34,545 nucleotides of DNA, taken from assembly GCA_023134165.1 (NCBI GenBank), contig JAGLUZ010000088.1, positions 1-34,545 of the forward strand, in the 5' to 3' direction. The translations under genes and the position numbers were made by a program. This DNA comes from Deltaproteobacteria bacterium (GTDB lineage Bacteria > Desulfobacterota > GWC2-55-46 > DRQE01). The notes beneath the pieces were generated by a model. That model was given only the letters and a program-made list of their open reading frames with translations, did not search any database and was not told the origin of the DNA. This document shows positions 2,914-21,733 of the stretch, piece after piece. Each line of letters begins with the position of its first letter. Position 1 is the first letter of the stretch.

Positions 2914-2961
2914 AGTTTAAAAAAATTCATAAAATATCACGGCTAAAATTTACAAAAAAAA

Positions 2962-4590
2962 TTAATGCAAAGCTCCACCAGTTCCAGCCTCAACCTTTCC
3001 GATGATTGCGGAGAAGGCCTGAGTACCACGGATTGAATCAAGCTCTGGGTCTGTCCTTAATTGCTCTAAATCATTAAAGCCACGTGCAACAGCCCACTTT
3101 AGGGCATGTAGTGCCTTGTCTTTTTTTCCAGTTAATGCATGAACGCAAGCAATATTATAGTACGCACTATATAGTTGAGGATTTAATTCAATTACCTTTG
3201 TGTATTCCTCAATTGCCCTATCATAGTCCCCTCTCTCAGCAAGAACGAGCCCCAAGTTATAGTGTAAAGTCACGCTTCTTGGTGACTTTATCACGGTATC
3301 ACTCAAAAGTGAATAATTATCATGCCAAACCATATTTCTTGAGTAAGTAAGGACTGAGAAAACTATAAAAAATACAAGAGCAATGGGGCCAGCAATTTTT
3401 ATATGCCAAAGATAGGACAACTGTGAGAGAAGCAAACCAAAGAGTAGAGCAAGCCCAACAGAGGGTAAGTAGAGATTACTCTCACTCATTAGCTTTGGTA
3501 AAGGAAGCAGGTGCAGGGAAGGCAGTACAGAGAGAAGAATAAAGAAAAAGATAAACCCAAGTCGTTTGTTATATCTTAGTGCCACAAATGAGAGATAAAT
3601 TGAGAGACAAAAGACTTGAAGAGGGATTATAACCTCAAAGCTTAAGAAACGGCTTGGAGGTAAGAACTCATACCACGCACTTAGATTTAGCGGGATAAAG
3701 AGCTTTAGAAAATACAACCCAAAGATACGAAGCATCATGAGTGTCTTTTGAAAAAAACTAAGGCTTGATAAAAAATCGTCTGGCGTGAGTATTAGGTAAT
3801 AAGCAAGGTAAATTATCAGGATGATAAAAAAAGGGATTATTTTTTTTATCTCTTTTAGTCCTACAAAAGCAACCAGATATATTATAAGAATAAACGGAAG
3901 TGCAAGGGCTGTAACAGAAGAGAAAAGAGCAAGGATAAAGAAGACTATAGACCCAGTAGAGACCTTTGATTTATTAGAGCGGATAAAAAAACAGATAGAG
4001 AGGAGGGTAAATATTACAGCAAGAATCTCTCCAGCACCTCCAAGACCTGTAACAGCATCAGTATTAACAGGGTAAAGAGCAAAGGCAACGGCAGAAAATG
4101 CACCCGCCCTCATTGTGAAAAGCTCTCTTGCAAGTAAGCCAACGCAGACCGAGGCCACGGCGTGAAGCATGTTATTTATGAGATGAAAACCGTAAGGGTT
4201 TACACCCCAAATTGCATACTCAAGGCTGAAGAGAACACCTCGAAGTGGACTCTCAAAAGGTCTTAAGAAATAAGCAGGAATACTTGAGAGACTCTTTATC
4301 TGCTGGCTACCCTCGATAAAGGAATATGTCGTAAAAGGAAGCTCAAAGAAAAGAGCATTTAGATAAACCAGAAAACCAGCAATAACAGCAAAGGCCATAA
4401 AGGCTGGAAAACGATTAGGAAGGGAAGATACTATAACTTCACTACCTAAAGGAGAAAAGTTTTTTTCTGTAGGCTCTTCCACTACATCTTCAAGACGCTT
4501 GGAATGAGCCTCTGTTGACTTCTTTGTTTTCACTTTCTTACGCCTACTCTTTCCAAGCAACAAACTCTCCTTTTTCACCAACCCTAGCAA
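2962..4590 (-). CDS. Polytopic membrane protein with C-terminal TPRs (TMTC/GT-C glycosyltransferase-like)
   Basis: 542 aa; multiple TM segments, then TPR (SVTLHYNLGLVLAERGDYDRAIEEYTKVIELNPQLYSAYYNIACVHALTGKKDKALHAL). Start uncertain (TTG/GTG alternatives; overlaps the upstream gene). Confidence 0.7.
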   Translation of the reverse strand: MLGLVKKESLLLGKSRRKKVKTKKSTEAHSKRLEDVVEEPTEKNFSPLGSEVIVSSLPNRFPAFMAFAVIAGFLVYLNALFFELPFTTYSFIEGSQQIKSLSSIPAYFLRPFESPLRGVLFSLEYAIWGVNPYGFHLINNMLHAVASVCVGLLARELFTMRAGAFSAVAFALYPVNTDAVTGLGGAGEILAVIFTLLSICFFIRSNKSKVSTGSIVFFILALFSSVTALALPFILIIYLVAFVGLKEIKKIIPFFIILIIYLAYYLILTPDDFLSSLSFFQKTLMMLRIFGLYFLKLFIPLNLSAWYEFLPPSRFLSFEVIIPLQVFCLSIYLSFVALRYNKRLGFIFFFILLSVLPSLHLLPLPKLMSESNLYLPSVGLALLFGLLLSQLSYLWHIKIAGPIALVFFIVFSVLTYSRNMVWHDNYSLLSDTVIKSPRSVTLHYNLGLVLAERGDYDRAIEEYTKVIELNPQLYSAYYNIACVHALTGKKDKALHALKWAVARGFNDLEQLRTDPELDSIRGTQAFSAIIGKVEAGTGGALH

Positions 4591-5587
4591 CCTCTACAGA
4601 GCTTTGGTATTTGCCCTTATCATCAACACCTCCAAGGACGTATATATAATCATCATGGACAAGGACAGCTGGTGCGTCCCTTGGAATTTTAAGCGAAGGA
4701 AAGTTTTTCCACTCACCAAGGCCTCTGTCGTCTTTAATCCCCGCGGCCTCAACAAACGAAAGAGCCTTGCCATCATAGCCACCAATAAGGTAAACCTGTT
4801 TGTCTACCCTCACAGCCACAGCACCGTACCTTGGATGATTTATCGAAGGTGATTCTTGCCACTGCCCAAGGGTTGCGTCTTGAAGTATCTCTGCGTACTC
4901 AACCTTCTCTGTAGCCCCACCTGAGCTTTTATGATGACCTCCCATTACGTATAACATACAACCACTACCAACGGAAGAGTGGATATATCTCCTGTGCTCC
5001 ATTATTGACTCAAGAGACCACGAGCCAAGTGTACCATCTGCATTTATCTTTGCTCGCTCCACAGTGTCTAAAAATTCACCATTATAGCCACCTATTGCAT
5101 AGATGTATCCGCCCCTAACATAAGCCGTCGTGCCACGGCGTGCGGAGAAAAGTTTTTCCTTTTCTAGAACCCACTTACCAAGGCTTCCATCACGATTAAC
5201 CTTAACCCTCTCAACGGTATTTAATAATTCTTGGCCGTACTTGCCGTAAGCTCCACCCAGGACATAGATGTAGTGATTGTAATAAACCCCAGCCGAGTAC
5301 CCGCGCGGGGTATTTAGGGATCTTGATTTTTTCCAACCCGTAAAACCCCCATCTGCTCTAATCCTTGTCCACTCAACCTCCGAGATATAACCCTTATCAT
5401 TAGAGCCACCGATTATATAGAAGGTATCACCAACAGCAACATATGCTGGTGCCATCCTCGGAGTTAGCATCTCCCCTCCGTTAACCCACGCAGAGGTATT
5501 TTCCCCAACCTCACCATTACTGATTGAGCAAGAAGGTAGAGTCAGAACCATAAATAAAAATACCGAGAAAAAAAACTTAAACCTCAT
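4544..5587 (-). CDS. Kelch-repeat beta-propeller lipoprotein
   Basis: 347 aa; lipobox-like LPSC after a hydrophobic signal; repeated YVLGG/YIIGG/YVMGG kelch motifs. Confidence 0.85.
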   Translation of the reverse strand: MRFKFFFSVFLFMVLTLPSCSISNGEVGENTSAWVNGGEMLTPRMAPAYVAVGDTFYIIGGSNDKGYISEVEWTRIRADGGFTGWKKSRSLNTPRGYSAGVYYNHYIYVLGGAYGKYGQELLNTVERVKVNRDGSLGKWVLEKEKLFSARRGTTAYVRGGYIYAIGGYNGEFLDTVERAKINADGTLGSWSLESIMEHRRYIHSSVGSGCMLYVMGGHHKSSGGATEKVEYAEILQDATLGQWQESPSINHPRYGAVAVRVDKQVYLIGGYDGKALSFVEAAGIKDDRGLGEWKNFPSLKIPRDAPAVLVHDDYIYVLGGVDDKGKYQSSVEVARVGEKGEFVAWKE

Positions 5588-5652: not shown

Positions 5653-8523
5653 CTAATACATAGGAATACCTTTTAAAAGTTTCTCAACTACTTCACGCTC
5701 AGTAGAGGCAACCTCAAAAAAACCTTTTTTCTTGTAGAGCTCAGAGAGGAGGAAATGCGTCCTCGGACTCTTTGGATTTAACCTCACACTTGTCTTTAAT
5801 GCCAAGCCAGCCTCTTTGCCACGCCCAGCCCTTAGGTGCAGACGACCAATATAGAACCACGCCTCTGCATACTCAGGGAAAAGCTCTACAGCCTTTTGAA
5901 AATAATTTAATGTTATTTTCTCTTCTTTTGTTGTTTTAAGCCCAACCCTGAGGTACTGTTTTGCAGCCGCCCTCTGTAAATCAACATTACCAGAGATAGT
6001 TGGGGTAATCTCATCCAAAAGAAAGACGGCTTTCTCTACTTCACCATCACTTATAAAGACCTCAGCATTTTTTATAATTGTGGCTAAGTGATAGGTATCA
6101 GCAATACGGCTTGCCTCGTCTTTTGTAACCCCTGAGAGGAGTGTCTCAGGGGAGGCTCTAAATTTTGTAACCCCCACATTTCTCTCCAAGGTCAGGGACT
6201 TAAAGATACAAGCGGGTGCCGAAAACTCTAAGAATGCATTATCATAGGTGTTAACCTTTGCACCCTTTGAGTACCTCTTCATTCCATCCTCATCAAAGGT
6301 ATAATAACTAATCAGGGTTGATAGATTATTTAGTCCCTTTTTATCAAGGTGATGAAGTTCCTTCTCTACCTCAAAACGATCCTTTAAGACTGAGTAATCA
6401 AGTTCCATGTGCTTAAGTGAACCCATAAGGATGTAATCGCCTTCAGCGGCATTTACCTCCCAGAGCGCACTGTGAGGAAAGTTCTTTGAGAAGGTTCTAA
6501 CAATTGACTTTAAGTCTATATCAGATAATCGAGTGCCATTTACCCACTGAGCAACTATTGCCTCACTACTTAACATACCCTTTAGCCCAGAATAATACTC
6601 ATCGGTGAAGAACCTTGAGCTACCATATATCCAAGGTGCTGGTGGGTTTGAGAGAATTACGTCGTAGCGTTTTCCGCTACTTAATATATCAGCTCTTCCA
6701 TCACCTGGAAGTAAACGCACACGCCAATCAAGCAAGGCCTCTCCGTTTACCTCCCTTAAAACCTTTGCCGCATTTACAATCTCTTCGGTGACCTCGACAA
6801 AATCTATTGACTCAACGGAGTGCATTGTTACGGCCTCTAGGGTAACGCCGCCTCCTAGCCCAAGGAGTAAAATATCCTTTGGACGACCGTGGAGGAGGAG
6901 AGCGATATCAGCTAATAGTTCGTGTACTGCGGTCTCATCACGATTAGAGCTTACCTCTACACTACCGTCAACAATTAAGGAAAGATCACCGTTAATATTT
7001 CTCGCTACCGCAACCGTTGAGGTGAGCCCCTCTTCGTAGTGAATTACAGAATTTTTCCGCTTCATCTCTCTTGCAATATCAGCCTTTAGGGTTCCACCAC
7101 TACCGTAAGTTGAGGAATAAAGAACCGGGCCACCAGAGATTAGATCATTATCCCAAGCAGGCAAAAGAAGAAAGAATATAGGAAAAACAAGTACCGCAGA
7201 GACGACAAAGCCGTGACGCCTAAGAGGTGTTAGCGAACAGGTGAGAAAAGCAAAAGAGCCAAGAGAGAGAAAAACAAGAGCAGAGAGGAGTAAGAGGTTG
7301 ATTAGTCCAAAGGATATTGTTAGTAGGTACATCGAGGTAACTACGCTAATTGAGGCACCAATAAAACCCATTATATATAAGGTGCCAACTCGCCGCATCT
7401 CTAGGCCAACGTCTTTTAGGGCAAGCCCGCTTGCACCTGCAAGATAAAGACCAAAGAAAAAAGATGGCAAGAATAAAACTGCAAAGATAATAAAAAACTG
7501 GAGAAGCCTGTAAACAAAAAAAGAATCGTAATGACCAAGTAGTATCTGAACAACGTAGATAGGGAGAATTACTTGAACCGCGGCAGAGATTAAGATTGAA
7601 ACTCCAGTTAAAACCTTAAAGATTGCAAGAGAGCTAGGGTGGTCTTTAAAGTATTTACTTAGGTAATGGGAAGTCATCGTAGCACTCGTCACTGCAAGTA
7701 TGAGGGCTAGAAAAAATAAGGAGATAGAATAAACCGTTGTGTCAAAGAGCATCAGTAGAATTCTGGCAGAGCCAAATAAGTAGAGTCCGATGGCAAAGAT
7801 TGAGATGGAGAGGTAGACAAAAACAGACCCTTTTTTAGGAGTTAAACCCTCACCACTCTTATCCCTTGTGGCTTCTTCTAAAGGTGTCTTATTTTTTTTA
7901 TAAACGAGAAAAGCAAGTAGTGCTGAGAGTAGAGTGAGAGCTACAATCACATACAAGGTAGTAGAATACCCAAGAGACGGAAGGAGAAAAAATATCATAA
8001 GAAAAAGACCAAGACCAAGGCCAAGACCAAAGAGAGAATAAAGACTTGCCCACGAGGATCTCTCTACTCTACTAAATTCCAATAGAGTTCTTATTAAAAG
8101 AGGAATAGAAAGACCAAGTATAACTGATGGAAGCATTAGTAAAAAAACACAGAACAAAGTGCTTGGAACTCCGAGGAGGCCAAAGGAGCCATAATAATTT
8201 GCGTAAAAAGCTATAAAAATACCGCTTGTTGCATCAAGAATAAAGGGGAGAAAAAAAGAAAACACCGCAGAGATAACTAGTACTATTGAATAAGACCTAA
8301 GAGACTTGGAGGAAGGTCTAAGGTATTTTAATGAGAGTAAGAAACCAATTGAAAGACCAAGGAAAGAGAAAATAAAGATAAGAAACGGAGTATAGTGAGT
8401 GGCGTCCATCACAGAGCCAAAAAAATGAGCCCAGAGGATTTGACTTGAGACGCAGAGCAAGCCGCTTAGAAAAATAAGAAGGCACACGCCCTTTAAGGGG
8501 TTCTTAAAGATAAGCACCTCCAA
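5653..8523 (-). CDS. Large fused multi-TM / spermidine synthase-like / TPR protein
   Basis: 956 aa; about 14 hydrophobic segments, SpeE-like domain (DILLLGLGGGVTLEAV, IDFVEVTEEIV, YDVILSNPPAPW), C-terminal TPRs. Confidence 0.8.
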   Translation of the reverse strand: MEVLIFKNPLKGVCLLIFLSGLLCVSSQILWAHFFGSVMDATHYTPFLIFIFSFLGLSIGFLLSLKYLRPSSKSLRSYSIVLVISAVFSFFLPFILDATSGIFIAFYANYYGSFGLLGVPSTLFCVFLLMLPSVILGLSIPLLIRTLLEFSRVERSSWASLYSLFGLGLGLGLFLMIFFLLPSLGYSTTLYVIVALTLLSALLAFLVYKKNKTPLEEATRDKSGEGLTPKKGSVFVYLSISIFAIGLYLFGSARILLMLFDTTVYSISLFFLALILAVTSATMTSHYLSKYFKDHPSSLAIFKVLTGVSILISAAVQVILPIYVVQILLGHYDSFFVYRLLQFFIIFAVLFLPSFFFGLYLAGASGLALKDVGLEMRRVGTLYIMGFIGASISVVTSMYLLTISFGLINLLLLSALVFLSLGSFAFLTCSLTPLRRHGFVVSAVLVFPIFFLLLPAWDNDLISGGPVLYSSTYGSGGTLKADIAREMKRKNSVIHYEEGLTSTVAVARNINGDLSLIVDGSVEVSSNRDETAVHELLADIALLLHGRPKDILLLGLGGGVTLEAVTMHSVESIDFVEVTEEIVNAAKVLREVNGEALLDWRVRLLPGDGRADILSSGKRYDVILSNPPAPWIYGSSRFFTDEYYSGLKGMLSSEAIVAQWVNGTRLSDIDLKSIVRTFSKNFPHSALWEVNAAEGDYILMGSLKHMELDYSVLKDRFEVEKELHHLDKKGLNNLSTLISYYTFDEDGMKRYSKGAKVNTYDNAFLEFSAPACIFKSLTLERNVGVTKFRASPETLLSGVTKDEASRIADTYHLATIIKNAEVFISDGEVEKAVFLLDEITPTISGNVDLQRAAAKQYLRVGLKTTKEEKITLNYFQKAVELFPEYAEAWFYIGRLHLRAGRGKEAGLALKTSVRLNPKSPRTHFLLSELYKKKGFFEVASTEREVVEKLLKGIPMY

Positions 8524-8898: not shown

Positions 8899-9648
8899 TT
8901 AATTACCCTGCACCCCAGAGAGCTGAAGCTCCATCCTTGAGAGCCTTTCTTTATAGACCTCATTATCAGGGGCAAGTGCCAGTGCTTTTTTCATATTGAT
9001 TATTGCTTTTTCCAGGTTACCACTAAGGACGTAGATCTCGGCTAGGCCATCAAAGAGATCAGGGGAATCGTCTTTTTCTTTAAGTGCAAGGAGCAAGGTC
9101 TTCTCTGCTTTCTCTAATTGCTTTATTTTGACGTAAAGTATCGCAAGCTCAAAGTGCTTTGTCCACTCAACTTGCCTGCCTTCAACTATTTTTTCAAGGA
9201 TTGCAATTCTGCTTTTAACTGCCGAGGCCTCACTAGCGCGCTCAATCATGTCCTGTAGGTGCGTAGCCTCTGGTGATATCTCAAGGGCTAAGTACCAGGA
9301 CTTTGTAGCCTCGCTATATTTTCCGTCTCTAAAAAAAGCCATGCCCAAGGCCTCTCGTATCTTAAAATTTTTTGGACGTAACTCAGTACCAAGCGTTAAT
9401 GTTTTTTGAGCTTCACTAAGTCGTAAGGAATGAAGGTATAAGATCCCAAGCGAGTAAGCGTCTTGCCAAGAAAAATTCTTTTGGTTTGATAAAACCTCTA
9501 GCCTTTTTATCTCTTGGTCTCGATCAGCTATATTTTGGTAGGTAAAGACCCCGAGTGGTTTTTCCTCTGTTTTTTCATTATGATAAAACCCCTTTACCGC
9601 AATTATTAGTACTGATATAAGTACTACAAAAACAATCATCTTTTTCAT
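8899..9648 (-). CDS. Membrane-anchored TPR protein
   Basis: 249 aa; N-terminal TM/signal (MKKMIVFVVLISVLIIAVKG) then several TPR units. Confidence 0.8.
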   Translation of the reverse strand: MKKMIVFVVLISVLIIAVKGFYHNEKTEEKPLGVFTYQNIADRDQEIKRLEVLSNQKNFSWQDAYSLGILYLHSLRLSEAQKTLTLGTELRPKNFKIREALGMAFFRDGKYSEATKSWYLALEISPEATHLQDMIERASEASAVKSRIAILEKIVEGRQVEWTKHFELAILYVKIKQLEKAEKTLLLALKEKDDSPDLFDGLAEIYVLSGNLEKAIINMKKALALAPDNEVYKERLSRMELQLSGVQGN

Positions 9649-9796
9649 AAAAAACTCCTAAGTGAAAATAAAAAACCCAACCCAAAATTGCAGGTTGAGT
9701 TAAAAGAATAAAAAGGTCTTGTACCTTTAAAAAGAAGTAAAAATCACTCAAAACTAATTAAGGATGACAAAGAACCTGGGAATCTACACGTGCCTG

Positions 9797-11005
9797 TTAC
9801 TGATTATGGCAACTATTGCAGGTGTTACGCATCCTGCCTTCTGCTACAACGTAGGCTGGATCTATATTTGCTCTACCAGTATCATCAGTCAAAACAAGCA
9901 TACTGTGGTCAACAAAACCTCCGCCTACATTACCCCCGCCGTGTGCGTAATGGCAAGAGAGACAAAAAGGCTGTTCGTCTCCATCAATTACACTTGGCCT
10001 ATCAAAATCGGCAAAACGAGCCCCTGAGGTAGCAGAGAGGTTGGTGGTCTCAGCATGGCCATTGCCCACAAGTGTGACATCAGCTACGGGATGTCGCCTC
10101 CACGGTGTTCCATTATTATCATCCCCCGCACCAATTCCTGCTAAAGCCGCTCCACCAAAGTTTATAGCGTCACCACCACTGATATTATAAAAATCAGAAT
10201 GGCAACGCGCGCACCACTCGGAAATGCGATTACCCTCCTCATTTGTTGCAATATTGAACTGGACGCTTGGTCTTAGAAAGGCATTAAAAGCAGTTGTATC
10301 ATCTATATTATTTACATCACAAGGAGCAAGCTGACCATCGGAGCAGGTTCCACCTGTATTCATCTCAAAGCTGACTATCACCCCATTTGTTGCATCATTA
10401 TTTGCTGAATTAGCTGGGTCATACAAAAGGTTACGATAATTCGGTGTGCCGTGCTGGGCATGACAATAAGTACAGACAAAGATAGAGCCTTTAGACTCTA
10501 TAACAGAGCCTGCACCACTCCACGGAATTGCGCCATTATAGCCAGGCGGTGGTGTCAATGTAATATCAGTACCGATATTGTGTTTATTTGCAGGGTTATC
10601 AATACCACTATGCATAAAATCCCCAGCCGAACTTACATAACCAAGGGTGTTGTTTGATACGTCCGGTGGTGTTGGGCTGAAGAGATTAGCCGAATTATTT
10701 TCATGGCAATACAAACAAAGGTCTGCGGCATTTGCCATCATCAAAAGTTTTGGAGGAGGTATTGCGGCACCGTCATAAGAGAGATAATTTATACCCCCGC
10801 CCTGCGTACCATGCATTACGTGGCACTGCGCGCAGGCAAGGCCAAATTGAGCAGAGTGATACTGTCCAGCAAAGGACGTGCGACCACCAAGGAGTGAGAA
10901 AAAAACCGCAAAAATAAATACAACAAAAACACGAGAGAAGAAGGATAGGAATATTCCCCCTCGGTTTTGAGTTTTCCTTTTAAATGTGATGACCTTTAAA
11001 GACAA
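9797..11005 (-). CDS. Secreted hexaheme c-type cytochrome, OmcS-like (paralogue 2)
   Basis: 402 aa; CXXCH motifs CAQCH, CLYCH, CTYCH, CARCH, CLSCH, CNSCH; N-terminal hydrophobic signal; same heme/His order as the 13637-14830 protein. Confidence 0.9.
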   Translation of the reverse strand: MSLKVITFKRKTQNRGGIFLSFFSRVFVVFIFAVFFSLLGGRTSFAGQYHSAQFGLACAQCHVMHGTQGGGINYLSYDGAAIPPPKLLMMANAADLCLYCHENNSANLFSPTPPDVSNNTLGYVSSAGDFMHSGIDNPANKHNIGTDITLTPPPGYNGAIPWSGAGSVIESKGSIFVCTYCHAQHGTPNYRNLLYDPANSANNDATNGVIVSFEMNTGGTCSDGQLAPCDVNNIDDTTAFNAFLRPSVQFNIATNEEGNRISEWCARCHSDFYNISGGDAINFGGAALAGIGAGDDNNGTPWRRHPVADVTLVGNGHAETTNLSATSGARFADFDRPSVIDGDEQPFCLSCHYAHGGGNVGGGFVDHSMLVLTDDTGRANIDPAYVVAEGRMRNTCNSCHNQ

Positions 11006-11062
11006 ATTAATTCCTCCAAAAAAGGCATCCTCACCTTAAAATTATATATAATTATTGGGTTT

Positions 11063-12154
11063 TTATTTGTAGACTTTTATTGAACGAGCACGCTTACTAA
11101 GTAAGTATACCATGCCTTTTACGTCAAAGTCAACATCACGAGGGGCAGAAACTCTCTCCCTTTGGGTAGGTGCTCTACCAAGGACACCGAGCAGTTCTCC
11201 GCCGCTACTTAAGATCTGAATTCCCTTGAATCTATCAATAACCCAAAGTCTTCCATGGGAATCTATTTTACCTGCTATTGGCGTGACAAGAATAGCCCCT
11301 CTTCCAGTCTCACTCTCAACCAAATTCGATACGAACTCCCCTGAGGTTGAAAAGACGCGAACTTTATAGTCTTCCCTAAGAGGCGTAAGGAGGTAAACCC
11401 TACCCCCTCCGACAGCAACCCCTGAGAGGGAAGCAAACCGAGGGCCAATTATTTTGGAGAATTTATCTTCCGTGTCCAAGACAACGCACTGCCGAGTAGA
11501 TTTATTTACGATATAAATATTTCCGTCCTCATCGATATCCATATCAGCTGGCATGAACGGAGTGTCCTCTGGGGCAAGCCTAGCAATTGTTTTTCCTTTA
11601 TAATCCAAGACCTGAACATAATCTACACCATCCTGTGTGATGTAAATTTTTCCTTCCCTGACGATCATATCAATTGCTTCACCAAGCATTGCACCCTTGC
11701 CAATGCGCGCGACTGGGCGAGCCTCAAGGTCAAAGATAAATATCTCGCCGTAATAAGAATCAACAACATAAATCTCTTGGTGGCGATTATCAACAAAGAT
11801 TGCCTGAGGTTTTTTAAAGGGGAGCTTAAAGTAGGAATTTATCTCAAACTTAAACCTTGGCTCAAGTATGGGCGGGGTCATCTTGATTTTGGGGGCTATT
11901 GGTTCTGCTTTTTTTTGAGGGATATTATCTATAATATCTGGCTCAAAGGGAAGCGGAAGAGGAACAAGAGCTGGGGTTGTGGTCGGTGAGAAAAACAAAA
12001 CAAGGGCGAGAACCAAACTCGCCCCAAAAGTTGCTAAGAGATATTTGCTGGTTGTTTTACCCAAATTACTTGACGACCATAAAGTCGACACGTCTTGACA
12101 TACCCATACCTTCTTCGCCCATGCCCTCAATGCCGACCTCGCCGAACGGAACAA
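11063..12154 (-). CDS. Inner-membrane-anchored NHL-repeat beta-propeller protein
   Basis: TM segment (YLLATFGASLVLALVLFF), Pro-rich linker, then NHL blades (QEIYVVDSYYGEIFIFDLE, GNIYIVNKSTRQCVVLD). The ORF-track start overlaps the upstream gene; a TTG near 12064 is a plausible true start. Confidence 0.75.
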   Translation of the reverse strand: MFRSARSALRAWAKKVWVCQDVSTLWSSSNLGKTTSKYLLATFGASLVLALVLFFSPTTTPALVPLPLPFEPDIIDNIPQKKAEPIAPKIKMTPPILEPRFKFEINSYFKLPFKKPQAIFVDNRHQEIYVVDSYYGEIFIFDLEARPVARIGKGAMLGEAIDMIVREGKIYITQDGVDYVQVLDYKGKTIARLAPEDTPFMPADMDIDEDGNIYIVNKSTRQCVVLDTEDKFSKIIGPRFASLSGVAVGGGRVYLLTPLREDYKVRVFSTSGEFVSNLVESETGRGAILVTPIAGKIDSHGRLWVIDRFKGIQILSSGGELLGVLGRAPTQRERVSAPRDVDFDVKGMVYLLSKRARSIKVYK

Positions 12155-13484
12155 CGATTAGCCTGTCTGGGTCAACGCCCTTCATGGCGAGGTACCCCAT
12201 GACGGCCTGAGCTCGTTTCTTTGAGAGAGCCATATTTTGCGCATCTGTGCCGGTAGGGTCAGCGTAGCCACGGATGTTTATTGTCTCTTTTGAGTTTCTA
12301 AAGAGCCACTTGGCGTTTTTGGTGAGAGCCGACCTTGCATCGTCGCTTAGGAGGAAACTATTAATCTCAAAATATACAGGTAAGAGACGCCCCTCTTCAC
12401 GGACAATTATCTCGACCTCATCCTCTTCTATGGGGATGATTACCTCTGGCTCTTCTGGTTCTTCTACTTTTGCTACAACAATCTGTGGCTTTGGCCGTGG
12501 CATGGTTGGTGGTACGTATTCTTGACCTTCGATTAATTCAAAGACCTTTATCTTACCAGATGTATCTGAGACGTAAATCCTACCAGTGTCATCGACAGTA
12601 ACTTTATAAGGTACTGTCATATCACGAGAATACCCAAATTCAAATAAAGGTAGCCCCTCTCTATTAAAGACAATTACACATTCCCTACGAAAATCAGGGA
12701 CAAAAATTCGTCCCTTTAATGTGTCAATGGCAATATCTACTGGTTGACTAAAGCCACCAAAGAGGCCAGACATAGTCCCAAATCTGCGTACTCCCTTGCC
12801 TGTGACTTTATCTAAAACAACAACTGAGAATGATGGTGTATCAAGGGCATAAACATAATCTCCATCAACTGTCAAACGTGCATTCCGAACAATATCCTCA
12901 CCTAGGAACTTTATAAATTCGTTCTTGGATAAATCAAAGACCGCAACCTTCCCATAAAAACCGATATAAAGCACCTCTCCTTCTAGGGTCACACTCTGTA
13001 TAACAAGTTCACCTATTCCTGGAATAGTAGAAAGGTCGAGTTCCTCAACAAACTTACCACTATAGTCTAATACAATAATTTTTTTTGCTTCAGATAAATA
13101 TAGATTACCGTCAGTGGCTACGGAGATAGTTAAAGGAGCCTTAATACGTGCATTACTATAATCTGTTGAATAAAGAAAAGATCCTTCCAAATTCATTATG
13201 ACAATTCTATTATTAAAAGAATCTAAGACAAATATCTCATTATGTTTTTCATCGACAAAAAAATCAGAGATCATACCAAAGCTACTTCCACTAACAATTG
13301 GATCAAGAGATTTTAGAAACTTAAGCCTAAGGTTCTTGTTCCAAGGCTCAATCTCAGACCAAGCATTTTGAGAAAACAGGAAGGGAGATAAAAAAGATAG
13401 TAAAACAACAACCACTGCAATTCTTAATGGTTGTTCTCCTCTACTGTTGTGTTTATTTAAAATTTTCAATAGAATATTTTTCAT
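12066..13484 (-). CDS. NHL-repeat beta-propeller fused to C-terminal OmpA-family peptidoglycan-binding domain
   Basis: Start trimmed to MKNILLKILNK...; signal sequence; NHL blades; C-terminal INIRGYADPTGTDAQNMALSKKRAQAVMGYLAMKGVDPDRLIVVPFGE...RRVDF typical of OmpA-like domains. Confidence 0.85.
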   Translation of the reverse strand: MKNILLKILNKHNSRGEQPLRIAVVVVLLSFLSPFLFSQNAWSEIEPWNKNLRLKFLKSLDPIVSGSSFGMISDFFVDEKHNEIFVLDSFNNRIVIMNLEGSFLYSTDYSNARIKAPLTISVATDGNLYLSEAKKIIVLDYSGKFVEELDLSTIPGIGELVIQSVTLEGEVLYIGFYGKVAVFDLSKNEFIKFLGEDIVRNARLTVDGDYVYALDTPSFSVVVLDKVTGKGVRRFGTMSGLFGGFSQPVDIAIDTLKGRIFVPDFRRECVIVFNREGLPLFEFGYSRDMTVPYKVTVDDTGRIYVSDTSGKIKVFELIEGQEYVPPTMPRPKPQIVVAKVEEPEEPEVIIPIEEDEVEIIVREEGRLLPVYFEINSFLLSDDARSALTKNAKWLFRNSKETINIRGYADPTGTDAQNMALSKKRAQAVMGYLAMKGVDPDRLIVVPFGEVGIEGMGEEGMGMSRRVDFMVVK

Positions 13485-13566
13485 TTCAAGTATGTTCAAA
13501 ACTAAGGTAAATAAAATATCAAAATGTACTGGAAAATTATATACCAAAACATAAGAAAAAGAAATA

Positions 13567-13602
13567 AAAAAAGGGAGAGGGTTTTAAAACCCTCTCCCTT
13601 TT
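13567..13602 (-). terminator. Rho-independent terminator downstream of the OmcS-like cytochrome gene
   Basis: AAGGGAGAGGGTTTT/AAAACCCTCTCCCTT inverted repeat with a flanking T-run on the minus strand. Confidence 0.85.
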
Positions 13603-13636
13603 AAATTATTACTAAATAATATCTAAGGTTCAGATA

Positions 13637-14830
13637 TTACTTATTGTGACATGCGTTACAACCTTGACCAACGGCCATGGCAAGACCAGTCTGGTTACCA
13701 GAAACTACAGCAGTGGTGTAATCCCATCTGAGACCATCAGAGTTTGGTCCACCATGAGCAAAGTGACAGCTCAAGCAGAAGACTTCATCTGTAGCAGGAG
13801 CAGTCTGATCGTAAGCACCAGTACCACCTGCAACACCTGAACCTGTAGCTACAGGTAGATTACCAGTACCTGCACCCCAAGTTGCATAGTTTGTAAGGTC
13901 GATTATAGTGTTTCCTGAACTTGAAGTAGCTGTTCCATCACCTGTTAGCTGAGTTCCAACTGGATGTCTTGTCCAGTCAACACCTGAAGCGTTGTTATCA
14001 ACTATACCGTCATTGTTCTGATCCTCATGCCATGCACCATGACACTGGGTACAGAAGTATGAGAATGATGTTGAATATACATTGTTGTTTAAACCCTGAT
14101 ATACAGGCCAGATGTTACCACCAAGGGCGTTACCTGTTGGAGCAGAGTTATCACCGGCATTAACACCACCAGTATAAGAATCACCTAAGTCGGTAATGAA
14201 CTCAAGTGTATTACCAAGGGTTGTCCAATCTCCAACAGCATTACCCTGTTCAGCTATATTAGCTCTAAGGTTTCTATAGACATTTACAGAAGCTGTTGTT
14301 ACGTTAGTACCATGTGGATCATGACAATTTGTACACTGTAAAGAAGGCATAACTGCAGGAACAGTTGCACCTGGAGGTGTACCAGCAGCGTTTAATGAAT
14401 GACCTGTATCGATTGAGGCTGCACCGTCTGCAACAAAGGTAATACCATTCCAAAGACCAGTACCACTAAAGTCTCCGCCAGCTCCAACAAGACTAAAGTC
14501 TGTTGCACCAAGAGCAAAAGGTGCCGTCTCTAGGTAAACAGATGGAGGAGTTGTTGCAGCAAGAAGTGCGTTATATACTATATCGTTGTTTGATGCTACA
14601 CCTGTATCTGCATGACATGAAAGACAGAAGTCTGATGTTGTACCAGTACCCCTTAAAAGAATTGCAGTTGGTGTACCACCAAGTGTTGCACCACCCTGGC
14701 TGTTATGCATTGTGTGGCATGAACCACAAGCAAGGCCGCCTGAGCCTTTGTGTACGGCCATTGCAGGTGTAGCGATCAAGATAAGACCGGCTACGATTGC
14801 TAGGGCTGTCATTACGAATGTTCTAGTCAT
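13637..14830 (-). CDS. Secreted hexaheme c-type cytochrome, OmcS-like (paralogue 1)
   Basis: Start at MTRTFVM (ATG 14830, AGGAGG just upstream); signal peptide ending APAMA-like (ATPAMA); CGSCH, CLSCH, CTNCH, CTQCH, CLSCH, CNACH; CGSCHTMHNSQGG, CTNCHDPHG and RHPVG motifs. Confidence 0.92.
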   Translation of the reverse strand: MTRTFVMTALAIVAGLILIATPAMAVHKGSGGLACGSCHTMHNSQGGATLGGTPTAILLRGTGTTSDFCLSCHADTGVASNNDIVYNALLAATTPPSVYLETAPFALGATDFSLVGAGGDFSGTGLWNGITFVADGAASIDTGHSLNAAGTPPGATVPAVMPSLQCTNCHDPHGTNVTTASVNVYRNLRANIAEQGNAVGDWTTLGNTLEFITDLGDSYTGGVNAGDNSAPTGNALGGNIWPVYQGLNNNVYSTSFSYFCTQCHGAWHEDQNNDGIVDNNASGVDWTRHPVGTQLTGDGTATSSSGNTIIDLTNYATWGAGTGNLPVATGSGVAGGTGAYDQTAPATDEVFCLSCHFAHGGPNSDGLRWDYTTAVVSGNQTGLAMAVGQGCNACHNK

Positions 14831-15041
14831 AGTTTCCTCCTGTTTTTTAGTGCGTAAAAGCAAGGCCTTTACGTCACTTGTTTGTTAAAACACTTTTTTT
14901 ATAAAAACATTTTAGTCGGTTTGAGCCAATAAAAAAGCCCCAATATGGTTGTGATGGTTGTTTTGGTCTTTTTGGGTAATACCTTTTGGACAACCTTATA
15001 ACAGGACACCCTAGCATTACTCGCAAACTCCAAACACCCTC

Positions 15042-15080
15042 GTTCCATATGAGGCACACATAACCTCGTCAGATAGGAAC
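15042..15080 (-). other. Possible structured 5' leader element of the cytochrome gene
   Basis: Nested inverted repeat: GTTCC(A)TAT/ATAGGAAC enclosing GAGG/CCTC; lies about 210 nt upstream of the 14830 start. Confidence 0.35.
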
Positions 15081-15404
15081 CTTCGTCAGCTCTTATCGTT
15101 AATTACAAATTAACAGATTTTAATCTTTGTGTCAAGGGAAAAATAATAAAATTTTTATATAAAAACAATCCTTATTTAATAGACCAGCACCCTTGCAAGT
15201 ATTAAGGAAAGTTAATATTATCACATTTGCAACTCATAAAAAGATAAAAAACTTTTTTGAAATCCTCGGAATATGCACTATATCAGTAATAAAAAAACCC
15301 TGTACGAATTGTGAAGATGTATCAGCATCAGATGGTGTATTCATTATATAGTATAAGGATTGGTTTTGGGGAGAAAATTAAAATAAAGAAGATGCTCTTT
15401 ATAC

Positions 15405-15433
15405 TTGACATTTTTACCAATAGATAAAATAAT
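15405..15433 (+). promoter_or_regulatory. Candidate sigma-70 promoter for the divergent cytochrome
   Basis: TTGACA (15405-15410), 17-nt spacer, AATAAT (15428-15433). Confidence 0.45.
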
Positions 15434-15477
15434 AAGGACGCACGCAGAAGTTTTAAAAATAAGGGGGAATTTTAATA

Positions 15478-16683
15478 ATGCAAAAAAATAAAGTACGCAA
15501 CATATTGATGGTAATGGTTGCGTTACTATCTCTTACGGCCTTTACGGGAACACTAGCCTCGGAGGCACTCGCAGTGGAGGAGAGTAAGTTTCGTAAGCGG
15601 TTTCAAAAGTATCATAAGGAACATAAATTTAAGCACCAAGTAAAAAACGTAAAAAAGAACAAGAAGAAGATAGTCGCCGAGGTTGAGGCAATCTTTATTG
15701 AGTTTGAGGCCGCAACAGAGGAGCGCGAAAAGCTCTACCTAATAGACCTAGCGATAAATATGGCGAACATGCATATGGAGTGGAACAAAGGGCCAAAAGA
15801 GCTATTAGAGAGAGCAGAGGCACATCGTCAACCAATCTTGAATGATATAAAGGCAAGGAAGAAGGCTGCAAAAGCAAGAAGGAAGGCCGAGAAGACACCT
15901 GGTAACTTTGTCTTAGATGCAAACGGCAAGGAGGCCATGGAAAAGGCCGGGGTTGCCGCAGTCATATACCCTCACTGGGTTCACAGGTCTTTTATGAGAT
16001 GTAAGGTATGCCACGAAGATATATTCCAGATGAAACGCGGGGCAAATGAATTAAACCATAAGAACTTTGATGAAGGAAAGTTCTGTGGTACGTGTCATAA
16101 TGGTGAATTATCCTTTGATACAAAACCAAAAGAGAACTGCGAAAGGTGTCATTCCTTTGGAAGTGTAGAGTCAAAGAAGCTTATGAACCTCAAGTACTAT
16201 GACCAAAAGAAGTTTGAGGAAATAGCAGAGAGACTCGGCACAGAATGGAATCATGACAAGTTACCAAATGGTAAGCTACCACGCACAAAGAAGTTTAAGG
16301 CCATCAACTGGGTTGAATTAGATAACTTAGAGGCATTTAAGCCACTCGTAGCCCTAGAGAAAGGCATGACCGTGGATAGTAAGGAAACAAACGGCGTTAG
16401 AGACACTGACATTCTCTTTAATGTTGATAGTTCCTTCATGAAGGACATTATCTTTAGCCACAAGATACACACGGCACGCCTAAAATGCGCCATGTGTCAT
16501 GATAAGATATTTAAGAAGGAGCTTGGCTCAAGCAAGGTAACGATGCTTCAGATAAAAGAAGGCAGTGCCTGCGGAACATGTCACGGTCGCGTTTCTTTTA
16601 GTAATAAGAACTGCAAGAGATGTCACGCTCAACCAAAAGGAGAGGTTCCTAAAGGCGTATTAATTCGCCCCGCCTCAAATTAG
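15478..16683 (+). CDS. Periplasmic/secreted multiheme cytochrome with two c7-type triheme repeats and a Lys-rich helical N-terminal region
   Basis: 401 aa; signal peptide; CKVCH, CGTCH, CERCH then CAMCH, CGTCH, CKRCH; RBS AGGGGG upstream. Confidence 0.9.
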   Translation: MQKNKVRNILMVMVALLSLTAFTGTLASEALAVEESKFRKRFQKYHKEHKFKHQVKNVKKNKKKIVAEVEAIFIEFEAATEEREKLYLIDLAINMANMHMEWNKGPKELLERAEAHRQPILNDIKARKKAAKARRKAEKTPGNFVLDANGKEAMEKAGVAAVIYPHWVHRSFMRCKVCHEDIFQMKRGANELNHKNFDEGKFCGTCHNGELSFDTKPKENCERCHSFGSVESKKLMNLKYYDQKKFEEIAERLGTEWNHDKLPNGKLPRTKKFKAINWVELDNLEAFKPLVALEKGMTVDSKETNGVRDTDILFNVDSSFMKDIIFSHKIHTARLKCAMCHDKIFKKELGSSKVTMLQIKEGSACGTCHGRVSFSNKNCKRCHAQPKGEVPKGVLIRPASN

Positions 16684-16830: not shown

Positions 16831-17679
16831 TTACTCGTACTTGTGTCGTTTCCATTTGTAGGGAAGATCTATAATGGTACCTGCTTCTTTGATGCTCTGA
16901 AATGCCTTTAGAGCGTCACAAAGAATTGTCCTGTGCTGGGGGGCGTTAAAGGGTTCCCCTAAGGGATGCCCCATAGGCCACTGAACAAATAAAGCCCTAG
17001 GTACACCTGTCTTCTCAGTTATATCCCTTACAAAGGTTACCCCAATTGTAGGAATACCTCCCTCTTCAAGTACTCTTTGTACCAATCCAACGGACCGGTT
17101 ACAGGTGATTCAGCCAGGGCTTAGGATAACAACATCGACTTTATCTTCTTTTAGACGACGCAAAACCTTTGGAGCTGATTCATTAATTAATACATCTACT
17201 AAGCCGCCAACGATATGCCCCATAAAACCGTAGTGACTTGTAGCAACCTCACTGATTACCCCCTCACCTGCAAGCTCACGCAGACGCTCTATTGGGAGTA
17301 CGATATTTACGTCTTTATCAGCATCACTGTGGTCGTAATAATCATGGGTAATCTTAAGATTTTTTGTATCTGTACCAGAAGGGATAGCCCTAAAAGTTGC
17401 GTCCCCTTCAGCGTCATACATATCAAATGGCTCATCTGCTGAGAGGTGAACGCCAGCTGTGGTGATAAGAGCTACCTTAAGCTCGCTTAAAGGTTTTTTA
17501 AGTGGCGTCCAGGGTATATTTGAGTCTGTGTCATTTAAATCATTATTATCAGTAGAACTCATTTTCATAGAAGAATCTCCTTTTGGGTTAGAGACAAGAT
17601 GCGGAGCAAGAAAGGCCACAACTGAGGGTAGCCTCGATAGTATTGAAGAGATAAGACGGTTCTTAAACCTTGAACTCAT
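16831..17679 (-). CDS. GrdB/PrdB-family (glycine/sarcosine/betaine/D-proline reductase selenoprotein B family) protein with in-frame UGA as selenocysteine
   Basis: ORFs 17110-17739 and 16831-17085 are in the same frame, separated only by TGA at 17110-17112 and nine sense codons: ...VDVVILSPG-U-ITCNRSVGLVQRVLEEGG.... Start ATG 17679 with AGGAG right after the upstream stop. Confidence 0.85.
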
Positions 17680-17692
17680 AAGGGAGCTCCTA

Positions 17693-20590
17693 CTAAGCGT
17701 CTTTTTCTGCTGTGCCTTCACCACTGGTAGTATCATCACTACCCGCAGAATCTGGATCTGGTTTAGGCTTTACAGGCAAGGTAAAGACAGGTGCCTTAAA
17801 CCACTTTAGTCTTAGTGCATTTAGAACAACACTTACAGAGCTCATTGCCATAACAGCGGCCGCATATACTGGATTTAGCACAATACCAAAGAAAGGGTAA
17901 AGGATGCCAGCGGCTACAGGGATAAGTGTTGCATTATAGAAAAATGCCCAAAAAAGATTTTGCTTGATATTCCTAATCGTTGCCCTGCTAAGTTCAATGG
18001 CAGTGACAATATGACGGAGATCATCTCGTATGAGGGTTATATCAGAGGCCTCCAAGGCAATATCAGCGCCACTACCAACGGTTATACCAACGTCAGCGCA
18101 GGCAAGAGCAGGTGCGTCATTTACACCGTCCCCAACCATTGCTACGTACCTTCCAGGTTGCTGAAGCCTCTTCACCTCAATGGCCTTATCCTCTGGTAAA
18201 ACCTCAGGGAGGATTCTTTTAATACCAAGCTCAGCACCAACTGCAAAGGCAGTTCGTCTGTTATCCCCAGTTAAGAGTACAACCTCTATACCAAGGGCTT
18301 GAACAGCTCTAATTGCCTCCCTTGAGTTTTCTTTTAGAGTATCAGCTACAGCAATAGCACCGAGGATAACGCTATCTAGTGCAATAAGGACCGGGGTCTT
18401 GCCTGCCTCAGCCAATTGGTTTATCTTCTCCTCAAGGCTACGAGGGATAAGTACGTCTTGCTCCTCCATAAAACTTTCATTACCAATTACAACCTCACCC
18501 TCATCTATTGTAGCACTAACACCGTAACCAGCATCAGCCTTAAAGCTCTCAATCTCTTCTACCTTGATATTACGTTTTTCTGCTTCTGCTACTATTGCCT
18601 TGCCAATTGGGTGCTCAGAGCCTGTCTCAACACCAGCGGCAATCCTAAGGACAGCATCTGCATCATGGCCAGTCTCCTCAGAAGCTATAACGTCAGTGAC
18701 CGAGGGCTCTCCTTTTGTAAGAGTCCCAGTCTTATCAAAGACCATAATAGAGACCTTATGGGCAATCTCCAAAGAATCTCCACCCTTAATTAACACCCCG
18801 AGTTCAGCCCCCCTGCCCGTACCAACCATAATAGAGGTTGGGGTTGCAAGCCCAAGTGCGCACGGACAAGCGATAATAAGGACAGTCACAAAGGCAAGAA
18901 CAGCGTGCGTAAAACTTGGCTCAGGGCCAAGGAGGACCCAGATAAAGAAGGTTACCATTGAGATGGCTATAACGACTGGAACAAAGTAAGAGGCTACGAG
19001 GTCTGCTGTCTTCGCAATTGGCGGCTTTGCACCTTGCGCCTCCTCAACCATCGTAATAATTCGTGAAAGTACAGTTTCTTTTCCAACCCTAAGGGCTTGA
19101 AACTTAAAGGCACCTGTCTTATTTATTGTCCCAGCCGTAACCAAGCCCCCTGCACTCTTATCAACAGGCATACTCTCACCTGTTACCATAGATTCATCAA
19201 CCGAAGAAGCCCCGCTTAGGATAACCCCGTCTACGGGAACTCTCTCACCAGGTCTAACAACTAGGATATCGCCTGCGACAATATCCTCAAGTGGAACTTC
19301 TGTCTCTGTGCCTTCCCTAAAGATACACGCAGTATCTGGGCGTAGGGATATAAGTTTTTTTATTGCATCTGTTGTGCGAGCTCTGGCACGAGCCTCCAAG
19401 AACCTGCCAAATAAAATAAGTACAATAATTGCCGCTGAGGTATCAAAGTAAACAGCAAGCTCGATAACTGAGGCCTCAAAAAATACAGGATAAAAAGTAA
19501 CCAAAACGCTGAAAAAGTATGCCGCACTAGTACCAACAACAATTAAGGTATTCATATCTGCGCCGTGACGAGTAAGAGACTTCCAAGCCCCGCGGTAGAA
19601 CTCAAAGCCGCACCAAAACTGGACAGGTGTTGCCAGGACAAACTGAGCAATAAATATCTCTTTTGTTGTGAGAGTGATAATATTACCAAGACCTAGGAAG
19701 GTGGCATTCATTAGGATAAATATCGGTACTGTAAGGAGTGTGCCAATACCAAGACGAAGCTTTAAATTCTTATCAATACTTTGTTTCTCTGGCGTCTCAC
19801 CAGAATACTGACTCTTCTCTTCATCTCCTAACTCATCAACTTCAAAGCCTGAGGTCTCAATGGCACGTATAATCTCTCTTAATGTAAGTGCTGTTGGTAG
19901 GTACTCAATTATTGCCTTGCTTGAGGAAGAAGTTACGTAGACCCCGACCATACCATCGAGTGCGTCAACTGCGGCCGTAACCAAGTCAGTACTATCAATT
20001 GAGGTCATCCCAACTACAGGAAGAGTTACTTTTTTGGTAGATACACCGTACCCAGTTGAACGAACAATATTTAATAAGTCAATTAAAGTAATATCTAGGC
20101 TATCATAGACAATCCTAATTTTTTCAATGGCAAAATTAACGCTCGCTGAGATTACACCATCAATACTATCAAAGGCATGCTCTATCTTTGAAGCACATGA
20201 GGCACAGGTCATCCCTGTAATTGCGATATGGATTGTTTTTCGTCCTCTATCAGAGGAAAAAACCGATTTTTTATTTTTTAGGAGTAAATTGACCTCAGGT
20301 AGGTTAGCCTTAGGCGTTTGGGACGCGTCCATTGCTCCATCTTCCGTATCATCAGCATTAGTATCACCATCAACCTCAAAGGAAAGGTTTTCCTTAAAGC
20401 GAACCTCTTCAGCCTCTGTCGTGGACTCTACTGCTTCCTCTGTAGGCTTTGAGAGAAAGACCTCTGGACTACGCACAAAGATATCCTTGCAGCTCGTTGA
20501 GCAAAAGTAGAAGGTATTACCTTCAAAATCAGAGTTAATACTTCGCTCAGAGCCCTCCACAAACATGCCGCAGACTGGATCTTGTACCAT
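17693..20590 (-). CDS. copA: P1B-type heavy-metal (copper-type) translocating ATPase with N-terminal YHS domain and HMA domains
   Basis: 965 aa; YHS (DPVCGMFV...[12 protein letters not shown]), HMA GMTCASC, CPC (IACPCALGL), [22 protein letters not shown]. Confidence 0.93.
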
Positions 20591-21346: not shown

Positions 21347-21733
21347 TTAGAAGTATTTAATTGATCCGTCTGCTGTTACATTCGCAGAATTCTGTGGTGC
21401 TGTCTTAAGCAATGTCTGCTTAAGCTGAATAAAACCAGCACCAGCACCATCTAGATTTGCACTTACAAAGCTGATACCAGCTGAGGTTTGATAGCCATAC
21501 TGTTGAAGAATTGCAAGAGTTGTTACTGTTCCATCAACCTTATCGGTTAAGTAAGCCATTGAAGCTGTGTAGGCATTCTTAATATCAGAGGTAAGACCAG
21601 CTTTGTAACCACGTTGCTTGTACTTACTGAACTGAGGAATAGCGATGGCTGCAAGAATTGCGATAATGGCCACAACTATCAAGAGTTCAATCAAGGTAAA
21701 ACCACTTTCTTTCTTGAGTAGTTTTTTAAACAT
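21347..21733 (-). CDS. pilA: Type IV major pilin (type IVa prepilin)
   Basis: MFKKLLKKESG|FTLIELLIVVAIIAILAAIAIPQF prepilin peptidase site and N-terminal helix. Confidence 0.96.
   Translation of the reverse strand: MFKKLLKKESGFTLIELLIVVAIIAILAAIAIPQFSKYKQRGYKAGLTSDIKNAYTASMAYLTDKVDGTVTTLAILQQYGYQTSAGISFVSANLDGAGAGFIQLKQTLLKTAPQNSANVTADGSIKYF

What the first reader, a model, noticed from the sequence alone, without database searches (positions are those of the whole stretch)
8899..16683. Putative OmcS-like cytochrome-nanowire locus with dedicated beta-propeller/OmpA partners
Seen: two hexaheme cytochrome genes on the minus strand flank an NHL-propeller/OmpA fusion and an NHL-propeller membrane protein, followed by a TPR protein, with a c7-type hexaheme cytochrome divergent. 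Knowledge: six-heme OmcS of Geobacter polymerises into conductive extracellular filaments, and I recall an NHL-repeat gene next to omcS in G. sulfurreducens. Inference: this is a self-contained module. The c7-type protein would act as periplasmic carrier, the propeller/OmpA proteins as envelope scaffold or exit apparatus, and the hexaheme proteins as filament subunits.
Basis: partly seen in the sequence, partly recalled or inferred. Interest (0 to 1): 0.9.

Follow-up and report, generated by a model that had tools for sequence, protein, structure and literature searches.

The report
OmcS-type nanowire and propeller gene cluster
This stretch of an uncultured bacterium's genome carries two distant relatives of the protein that Geobacter builds into electricity-conducting filaments, together with conserved helper genes, and a strong hairpin behind one of the two genes appears to mark which protein forms the filament.

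Summary
Two six-heme cytochromes flank an NHL-propeller/OmpA fusion and an NHL propeller, followed by a TPR protein; a six-heme c7-type cytochrome diverges. Single-sequence search found no OmcS relationship. Family profiles do: OmcS is the best PDB match for both (7e-18 and 5e-12), and five non-CXXCH histidines of OmcS (H16, H110, H147, H257, H335) are invariant in both families. The cytochrome and propeller genes co-occur strongly across 59 genomes.

The kind is known: the osc (omcS-companion) and oet clusters of Geobacter and ANME-partner bacteria. The locus is not self-contained. PPIase, CsgG-like lipoprotein, 26-heme and 15-heme genes lie on two other contigs of this genome, and no Geobacter-type OetI barrel was found.

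New here: a strong hairpin, usually terminator-like, directly follows the upstream cytochrome (CYT1) in 16 of 19 related genes but none of 15 CYT2 genes. In Geobacter relatives it follows 24 of 27 OmcS-clade genes, but 0 of 14 OmcT-type and 0 of 11 GSU2501-type genes. It probably marks the abundant filament subunit, so I assign filament formation to CYT1 and an accessory role to CYT2. AlphaFold models were too poor to test the fold; polymerisation is untested.

The parts
13637..14830 (-). CYT1: hexaheme OmcS-family cytochrome with signal peptide; proposed filament subunit (ORF extends to 14863)
   Evidence: Six CXXCH; profile hits OmcS 6ef8 at 7e-18; distal histidines conserved; followed by a conserved strong hairpin
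13569..13602 (-). Intrinsic-terminator-like hairpin directly after CYT1 (15 bp stem, T tract)
   Evidence: counterpart after 16 of 19 CYT1 genes, 0 of 15 CYT2
12066..13484 (-). NHL beta-propeller fused to a C-terminal OmpA-like peptidoglycan-binding domain (ORF extends to 13547)
   Evidence: Pfam NHL and OmpA; orthologue next to CYT1 in relatives, with or without OmpA
11063..12154 (-). Second NHL beta-propeller protein with N-terminal signal/membrane segment (true start uncertain; the ORF's 5' end overlaps the NHL-OmpA gene)
   Evidence: Pfam NHL; lies directly upstream of CYT2 in most relatives that have CYT2
9797..11005 (-). CYT2: second hexaheme OmcS-superfamily cytochrome, a separate deep clade; proposed accessory/adaptor
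   Evidence: Six CXXCH; profile hits OmcS at 5.2e-12; one clade, support 100; no hairpin within 90 nt in 15 of 15
8899..9648 (-). TPR protein with N-terminal membrane anchor, conserved as last gene of the block
   Evidence: Pfam TPR; orthologue follows CYT2 in most relatives
5653..8523 (-). MFS/spermidine-synthase-like/TPR fusion; possible member
   Evidence: a homologue lies between omcS and omcT in Geobacter relative G203, and GSU2502 beside omcT is annotated spermidine synthase (PMC10599522); not found next to the cluster in near relatives
15478..16683 (+). c7-type cytochrome, two three-heme domains; probable periplasmic carrier
   Evidence: TIGR04257 7.4e-33, PF14522 6e-28; c7-type genes also sit at CYT1 loci of Nitrospinota and near the osc cluster of G274

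Best explanation
The locus is the filament-and-accessory half of an OmcS-type (osc/oet) extracellular electron transfer system in an uncultured deltaproteobacterium. CYT1 is exported and probably polymerises head to tail through an interfacial heme shared between subunits. Its message is mostly ended behind the gene, with some read-through, so the subunit is made in excess over the rest. The NHL-OmpA protein is held to peptidoglycan by its OmpA domain and, with the second propeller and the TPR protein, acts in the periplasm in folding, docking or shaping of the filament. CYT2, beside the second propeller, is a low-copy OmcS-like cytochrome that probably joins the filament base to the conduit, or starts or caps it. 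The c7-type protein feeds electrons in the periplasm; the 26-heme and 15-heme proteins and a PPIase encoded elsewhere form the conduit and folding parts. Shown: homology, ligand conservation, co-conservation, hairpin pattern, presence of the other parts. Inferred: polymerisation, every functional role, electron direction.
For: Profiles of the CYT1 and CYT2 families hit OmcS first among all PDB sequences. OmcS H16, H110, H147, H257 and H335 are invariant in 11 CYT1 and 11 CYT2 proteins, and their CYT1 counterparts in 45 sequences of several phyla. CYT1, CYT2 and the CYT1-adjacent propeller co-occur (all 15 genomes with the propeller have both; Fisher about 1e-11 to 1e-10). In relatives the block sits beside PPIase-26heme-15heme-NHL-c7, the same set as in Geobacter relatives carrying omcS and in the published osc/oet clusters (PMC13194489; PMC10553843; PMC5539420). 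The own genome has CsgG-like lipoprotein-PPIase-26heme on C85 and 15heme-NHL-c7 on C52. Hairpin pattern; omcS makes monocistronic transcripts besides omcST in G. sulfurreducens (PMC2680965).
Against: Single-sequence search finds no OmcS match at E<=1. AlphaFold models are weak (pLDDT 50.6 and 37.9) and Foldseek found nothing. The OetI-type barrel of Geobacter was not found in this genome. Transcription and termination are predicted only. That OmcS filaments serve as conduits in vivo is itself disputed (PMC11077965, abstract).
Confidence: 0.66

Rival explanations
1. Both hexaheme cytochromes form filaments (two wires or one mixed wire), each with its own propeller partner.
For: Both belong to the OmcS superfamily with the same conserved histidines, including the H16 counterpart; each has a neighbouring propeller gene.
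Against: The hairpin that follows nearly all CYT1 and OmcS genes follows none of 15 CYT2, 14 OmcT-type or 11 GSU2501-type genes, which suggests unequal dosage; CYT2 is a separate long-branched clade.
Confidence: 0.17
2. The hexaheme proteins are non-polymerising extracellular or periplasmic electron carriers of the OmcS family, and the propellers organise a cytochrome complex rather than a filament.
For: No structure model supports a filament interface; among G. [quoted passage not shown]
Against: Conservation of the set of distal histidines including the one at OmcS H16, which by my recollection of the OmcS structure serves the neighbouring subunit; the gene company matches the assembly cluster reported for OmcS wires.
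Confidence: 0.14
3. The 3' hairpin is only an operon-boundary terminator or an mRNA-stabilising element with no bearing on which cytochrome is the subunit (this rival concerns the hairpin reading alone and can hold together with the best explanation).
For: Strong hairpins follow about 7% of unrelated genes (42 of 567); in the window a weaker hairpin lies between CYT2 and the TPR gene (9701-9674); half of the Geobacter hairpins lack a clear T tract.
Against: It lies inside a conserved gene order and singles out the same gene type in two distant groups, with 0 of 25 hits in Geobacter paralogues.
Confidence: 0.3

Closest known systems
osc (omcS-companion) cluster of Geobacter sulfurreducens, about GSU2494-GSU2504
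   Same: OmcS-family cytochromes, beta-propeller proteins, PPIC-type PPIase, CsgG/GNA1162-like lipoprotein, 26-heme and 15/16-heme cytochromes
   Different: Here split over separate contigs; the propeller carries an OmpA domain; the second cytochrome belongs to its own clade; Geobacter-type barrel not found
OetABI conduit clusters of ANME-partner sulfate reducers (SEEP-SRB, HotSeep-1)
   Same: PPIase, 26-heme and 15/16-heme cytochromes, propeller, OmcS-like and further six-heme cytochromes
   Different: No OetI barrel detected with a Geobacter profile; whether CYT2 equals their six-heme Apc2a could not be tested
OmcS (PDB 6ef8/6nef)
   Same: Six CXXCH in register, five further histidines shared, best profile match
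   Different: Too distant for single-sequence detection; fold and polymerisation untested

Membership tests
OmcS family (hexaheme filament cytochromes) | Six CXXCH motifs in register with OmcS | tested here: met
   all six motif columns align in CYT1 and CYT2
OmcS family (hexaheme filament cytochromes) | Significant homology over the length | tested here: met
   Profile against PDB: OmcS best, 7e-18 (CYT1) and 5.2e-12 (CYT2); single sequences gave nothing
OmcS family (hexaheme filament cytochromes) | Distal histidines outside the heme motifs, including the one at H16 | tested here: met
   H16, H110, H147, H257, H335 invariant in 22 proteins; the assignment of H16 to the neighbouring subunit's heme is from memory, the existence of such an interfacial heme from PMC9473688 and PMC12954529
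OmcS family (hexaheme filament cytochromes) | OmcS-like fold | tested here: inconclusive
   AlphaFold pLDDT 50.6 and 37.9; Foldseek no match for CYT1
OmcS family (hexaheme filament cytochromes) | Polymerises into extracellular filaments | not testable with these tools
   Needs protein and microscopy
osc cluster | PPIase, propeller and secretion-type lipoprotein in the genome | tested here: met
   Own contig C85: CsgG-like lipoprotein (28% identity, 2e-20 to the Geobacter one) and PPIC-type PPIase; propellers in the window and on C52
osc cluster | All parts in one cluster | tested here: not met
   C52 continues into ribosomal protein L21 and Obg, not into the window's block; contiguous in relatives L043, L044, L048
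OetABI conduit | 26-heme and 15/16-heme cytochromes | tested here: met
   C85 26-heme-type gene (23 CXXCH up to the contig end) and C52 15-heme-type fragment (7 CXXCH)
OetABI conduit | OetI outer-membrane barrel | tested here: not met
   A profile of five Geobacter barrels found none in G000 or its relatives bar one genome, G044; the draft is 84% complete and a divergent barrel would be missed

The most novel reading that the evidence does not exclude
A strong 3' hairpin directly after the gene is a conserved mark of the true filament subunit among OmcS-like paralogues across phyla, so that nanowire subunits can be told from their paralogues by sequence; CYT2 would then be a new class of dedicated adaptor or cap cytochrome.
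Probability: 0.4. Interest if true: 0.75.

Novelty: new variant of a known kind. Interest (0 to 1): 0.58.

Why it matters
A recent study states that its sequence models would lack the resolution to detect authentic OmcS wires outside a genus (PMC12977616). A hairpin that separates OmcS from OmcT-type and GSU2501-type genes in Geobacter, and CYT1 from CYT2 here, offers a criterion that uses no protein similarity and can be checked by RNA-seq or proteomics. The locus also extends osc-type clusters to uncultured deltaproteobacterial and Nitrospinota lineages, with a propeller directly fused to a peptidoglycan-binding domain, which suggests how the apparatus is anchored.

Tried and rejected
Single-sequence PDB search: nothing; profiles were needed. 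AlphaFold of both cytochromes and Foldseek of CYT1: confidence too low to count for or against. The immunoglobulin chains in the CYT1 profile search are low-complexity noise (best 8.6e-6 against 7e-18 for OmcS). G. sulfurreducens itself was not among the genomes reached, so relatives with OmcS up to 72% identical were used. The spermidine-synthase fusion as a core part: left unproven, since near relatives lack it at this place. The Rfam scan of the window found nothing. The original paper on the osc cluster is not in the library; it is cited through PMC13194489.

Full report
WHAT IS THERE. The window is contig C157 of a 1.6 Mb draft genome (84% complete, 169 contigs). On the minus strand, in order of transcription, they are CYT1 (six CXXCH), an NHL propeller with a C-terminal OmpA domain, an NHL propeller, CYT2 (six CXXCH) and a TPR protein. 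After a further 375 bp comes a fusion of an MFS-type membrane part, a spermidine-synthase-like domain and TPRs (5653-8523). A c7-type cytochrome with two three-heme domains diverges. Shine-Dalgarno sequences support an ATG start for CYT1 at 14830 and a TTG start for CYT2 at 11005.

THE HOST. All are titled 'Deltaproteobacteria bacterium' MAGs. The host is thus an uncultured lineage of that grade; nothing closer is claimed.

ARE THEY OMCS RELATIVES. phmmer with either protein found nothing in the PDB up to E = 1. Profiles of 11 orthologues each gave OmcS (6ef8) as best hit, 7e-18 for CYT1 and 5.2e-12 for CYT2, over nearly the whole length. In a joint alignment the six heme motifs fall in register. 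OmcS H16, H110, H147, H257 and H335, which lie outside the motifs, are histidine in all 11 CYT1 and all 11 CYT2 proteins. A further N-terminal histidine is shared by both families but lies outside the OmcS fragment I used. The CYT1 counterparts of these five stay invariant in 45 sequences from several phyla. In OmcS and OmcE one heme is held by histidines of two neighbouring subunits (PMC9473688; PMC12954529). That in OmcS this is H16, in the motif CHTMH, is my recollection of the structure paper. CYT1 has CHTMH and CYT2 CHVMH.

STRUCTURE. AlphaFold gave pLDDT 50.6 / pTM 0.50 for CYT1 and 37.9 / 0.27 for CYT2, and Foldseek found no PDB match for the CYT1 model.

CO-CONSERVATION. In 59 genomes (the window's own and 58 relatives), CYT1 (E<=1e-60) occurs in 19, CYT2 in 18, and the CYT1-adjacent propeller (E<1e-35) in 15. 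All 15 have both cytochromes. Fisher p is about 1e-11 to 1e-10 for each pair, though relatedness makes these p-values optimistic. The order CYT1 - propeller - (TPR proteins) - propeller - CYT2 - TPR is kept in most contigs long enough to show it, and in Nitrospinota without the last TPR gene. The OmpA domain is present on the CYT1-side propeller in G000, G006, G018, G049, G051, G056, G057 and in three Nitrospinota loci, and absent in others. It is a common option, not a constant.

THE LARGER SYSTEM. In relatives L043, L044 and L048 the block directly follows PPIase - 26-heme - 15-heme - NHL - (c7) - HD-GYP regulator. In this genome these parts exist but elsewhere. Contig C85 has a CsgG-like lipoprotein (28% identical, 2e-20, to a lipoprotein near the PPIase in a Geobacter osc cluster), a PPIC-type PPIase and a 26-heme-type gene cut by the contig end. 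Contig C52 starts inside a 15-heme-type gene and goes on with NHL, c7 and HD-GYP genes and then ribosomal protein L21 and Obg. So the window is not self-contained. In Geobacter relatives the cluster reads NHL - omcS - (spermidine-synthase fusion in G203) - omcT - propeller lipoprotein - barrel - lipoproteins - PPIase - 26-heme - 15/16-heme - NHL - hexaheme, with some members missing in some genomes. This is the published osc cluster (OscH folding, OscEFG secretion, OscD morphology; PMC13194489) and the oet/SEEP-SRB operon (PMC10553843, PMC5539420). A profile of five Geobacter barrels found none in this genome; a divergent barrel, or the missing 16% of the genome, could hide one.

THE HAIRPIN. 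One search showed a strong terminator-like hairpin right behind CYT1 (13602-13569; fold z = -5.1). Testing all orthologues, 16 of 19 module CYT1 genes have one within 90 nt of the stop, mostly 13-16 bp stems with a T tract. 0 of 15 CYT2 genes have one, and no other cluster gene type has more than one, apart from the diverse TPR set with 2 of 29. Stems of at least 13 bp with at least 6 G-C pairs follow 14 of these 19 genes against 8 of 779 other ORFs. In 60 OmcS-like genes of Geobacter relatives a tree separates OmcS, OmcT-type and GSU2501-type clades. A hairpin of at least 9 bp with at least 6 G-C pairs follows 24 of 27 OmcS-clade genes, 6 of 8 of a side clade, 0 of 14 OmcT-type and 0 of 11 GSU2501-type genes. 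With the stricter rule that demands a T tract the figures are 17 of 35 (OmcS plus side clade) against 0 of 25 (p = 1.7e-5), so some of these hairpins may act on RNA stability and not as terminators. Among distant OmcS-like genes 31 of 60 have one, against 42 of 567 unrelated genes. In 8 of 12 loci with several paralogues exactly one gene has it. OmcT and GSU2501 themselves were not in hand; those clade labels come from the tree and from cluster position. The genes are related, so counts are not independent. The pattern fits the report that omcS yields both monocistronic and omcST transcripts (PMC2680965).

HOW IT PROBABLY WORKS. CYT1 is the abundant exported subunit. Read-through past the hairpin makes smaller amounts of the propellers, CYT2 and the TPR protein. 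The OmpA domain would tie a propeller to peptidoglycan (general knowledge of the OmpA-like domain). CYT2, next to the second propeller and forming its own clade (support 100), may start, cap or connect the wire. The c7 protein would shuttle electrons in the periplasm. Only homology, order, co-occurrence and the hairpin pattern are shown; all roles are inferred, and the in-vivo role of OmcS wires is debated (PMC11077965, abstract).

NOVELTY. The kind is known. The OmpA fusion, the separate CYT2 clade, the split location and the lack of a detectable Geobacter-type barrel make it a variant. I did not find the hairpin rule in the papers searched: the one targeted search listed ten papers, none of which contains the word 'terminator'. 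That is a weak novelty check.

Noticed in passing
window 16831-17739 (-), TGA at 17110-17112: A GrdB-like protein (PF07355, 4.6e-10) is interrupted by an in-frame TGA in the context LSPG-U-ITC and reads on for 92 more residues: a probable selenoprotein (UxxC). The genome encodes SelB over the curated cut-off.
   Followed up: partly
window 17693-20590 (-): Heavy-metal (copper-type) P-type ATPase with YHS and HMA domains.
   Followed up: no
window 1312-5587 (-): A second spermidine-synthase-like protein, a PMT/TPR protein and a kelch-repeat propeller follow the cluster downstream; the kelch protein has a homologue behind the same cluster in L041.
   Followed up: no
window 21347-21733 (-): Small protein with a prepilin-type N-terminal methylation motif.
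   Followed up: no
window 15405-15433 (+): Near-perfect sigma-70-like promoter (11 of 12 matches) about 45 bp before the c7-type gene.
   Followed up: no
L065:1364-1930, L154:308-934: CsgG/GNA1162-like lipoprotein upstream of the PPIase; the L154 copy is homologous to a lipoprotein of the Geobacter osc cluster: a candidate secretion component.
   Followed up: partly
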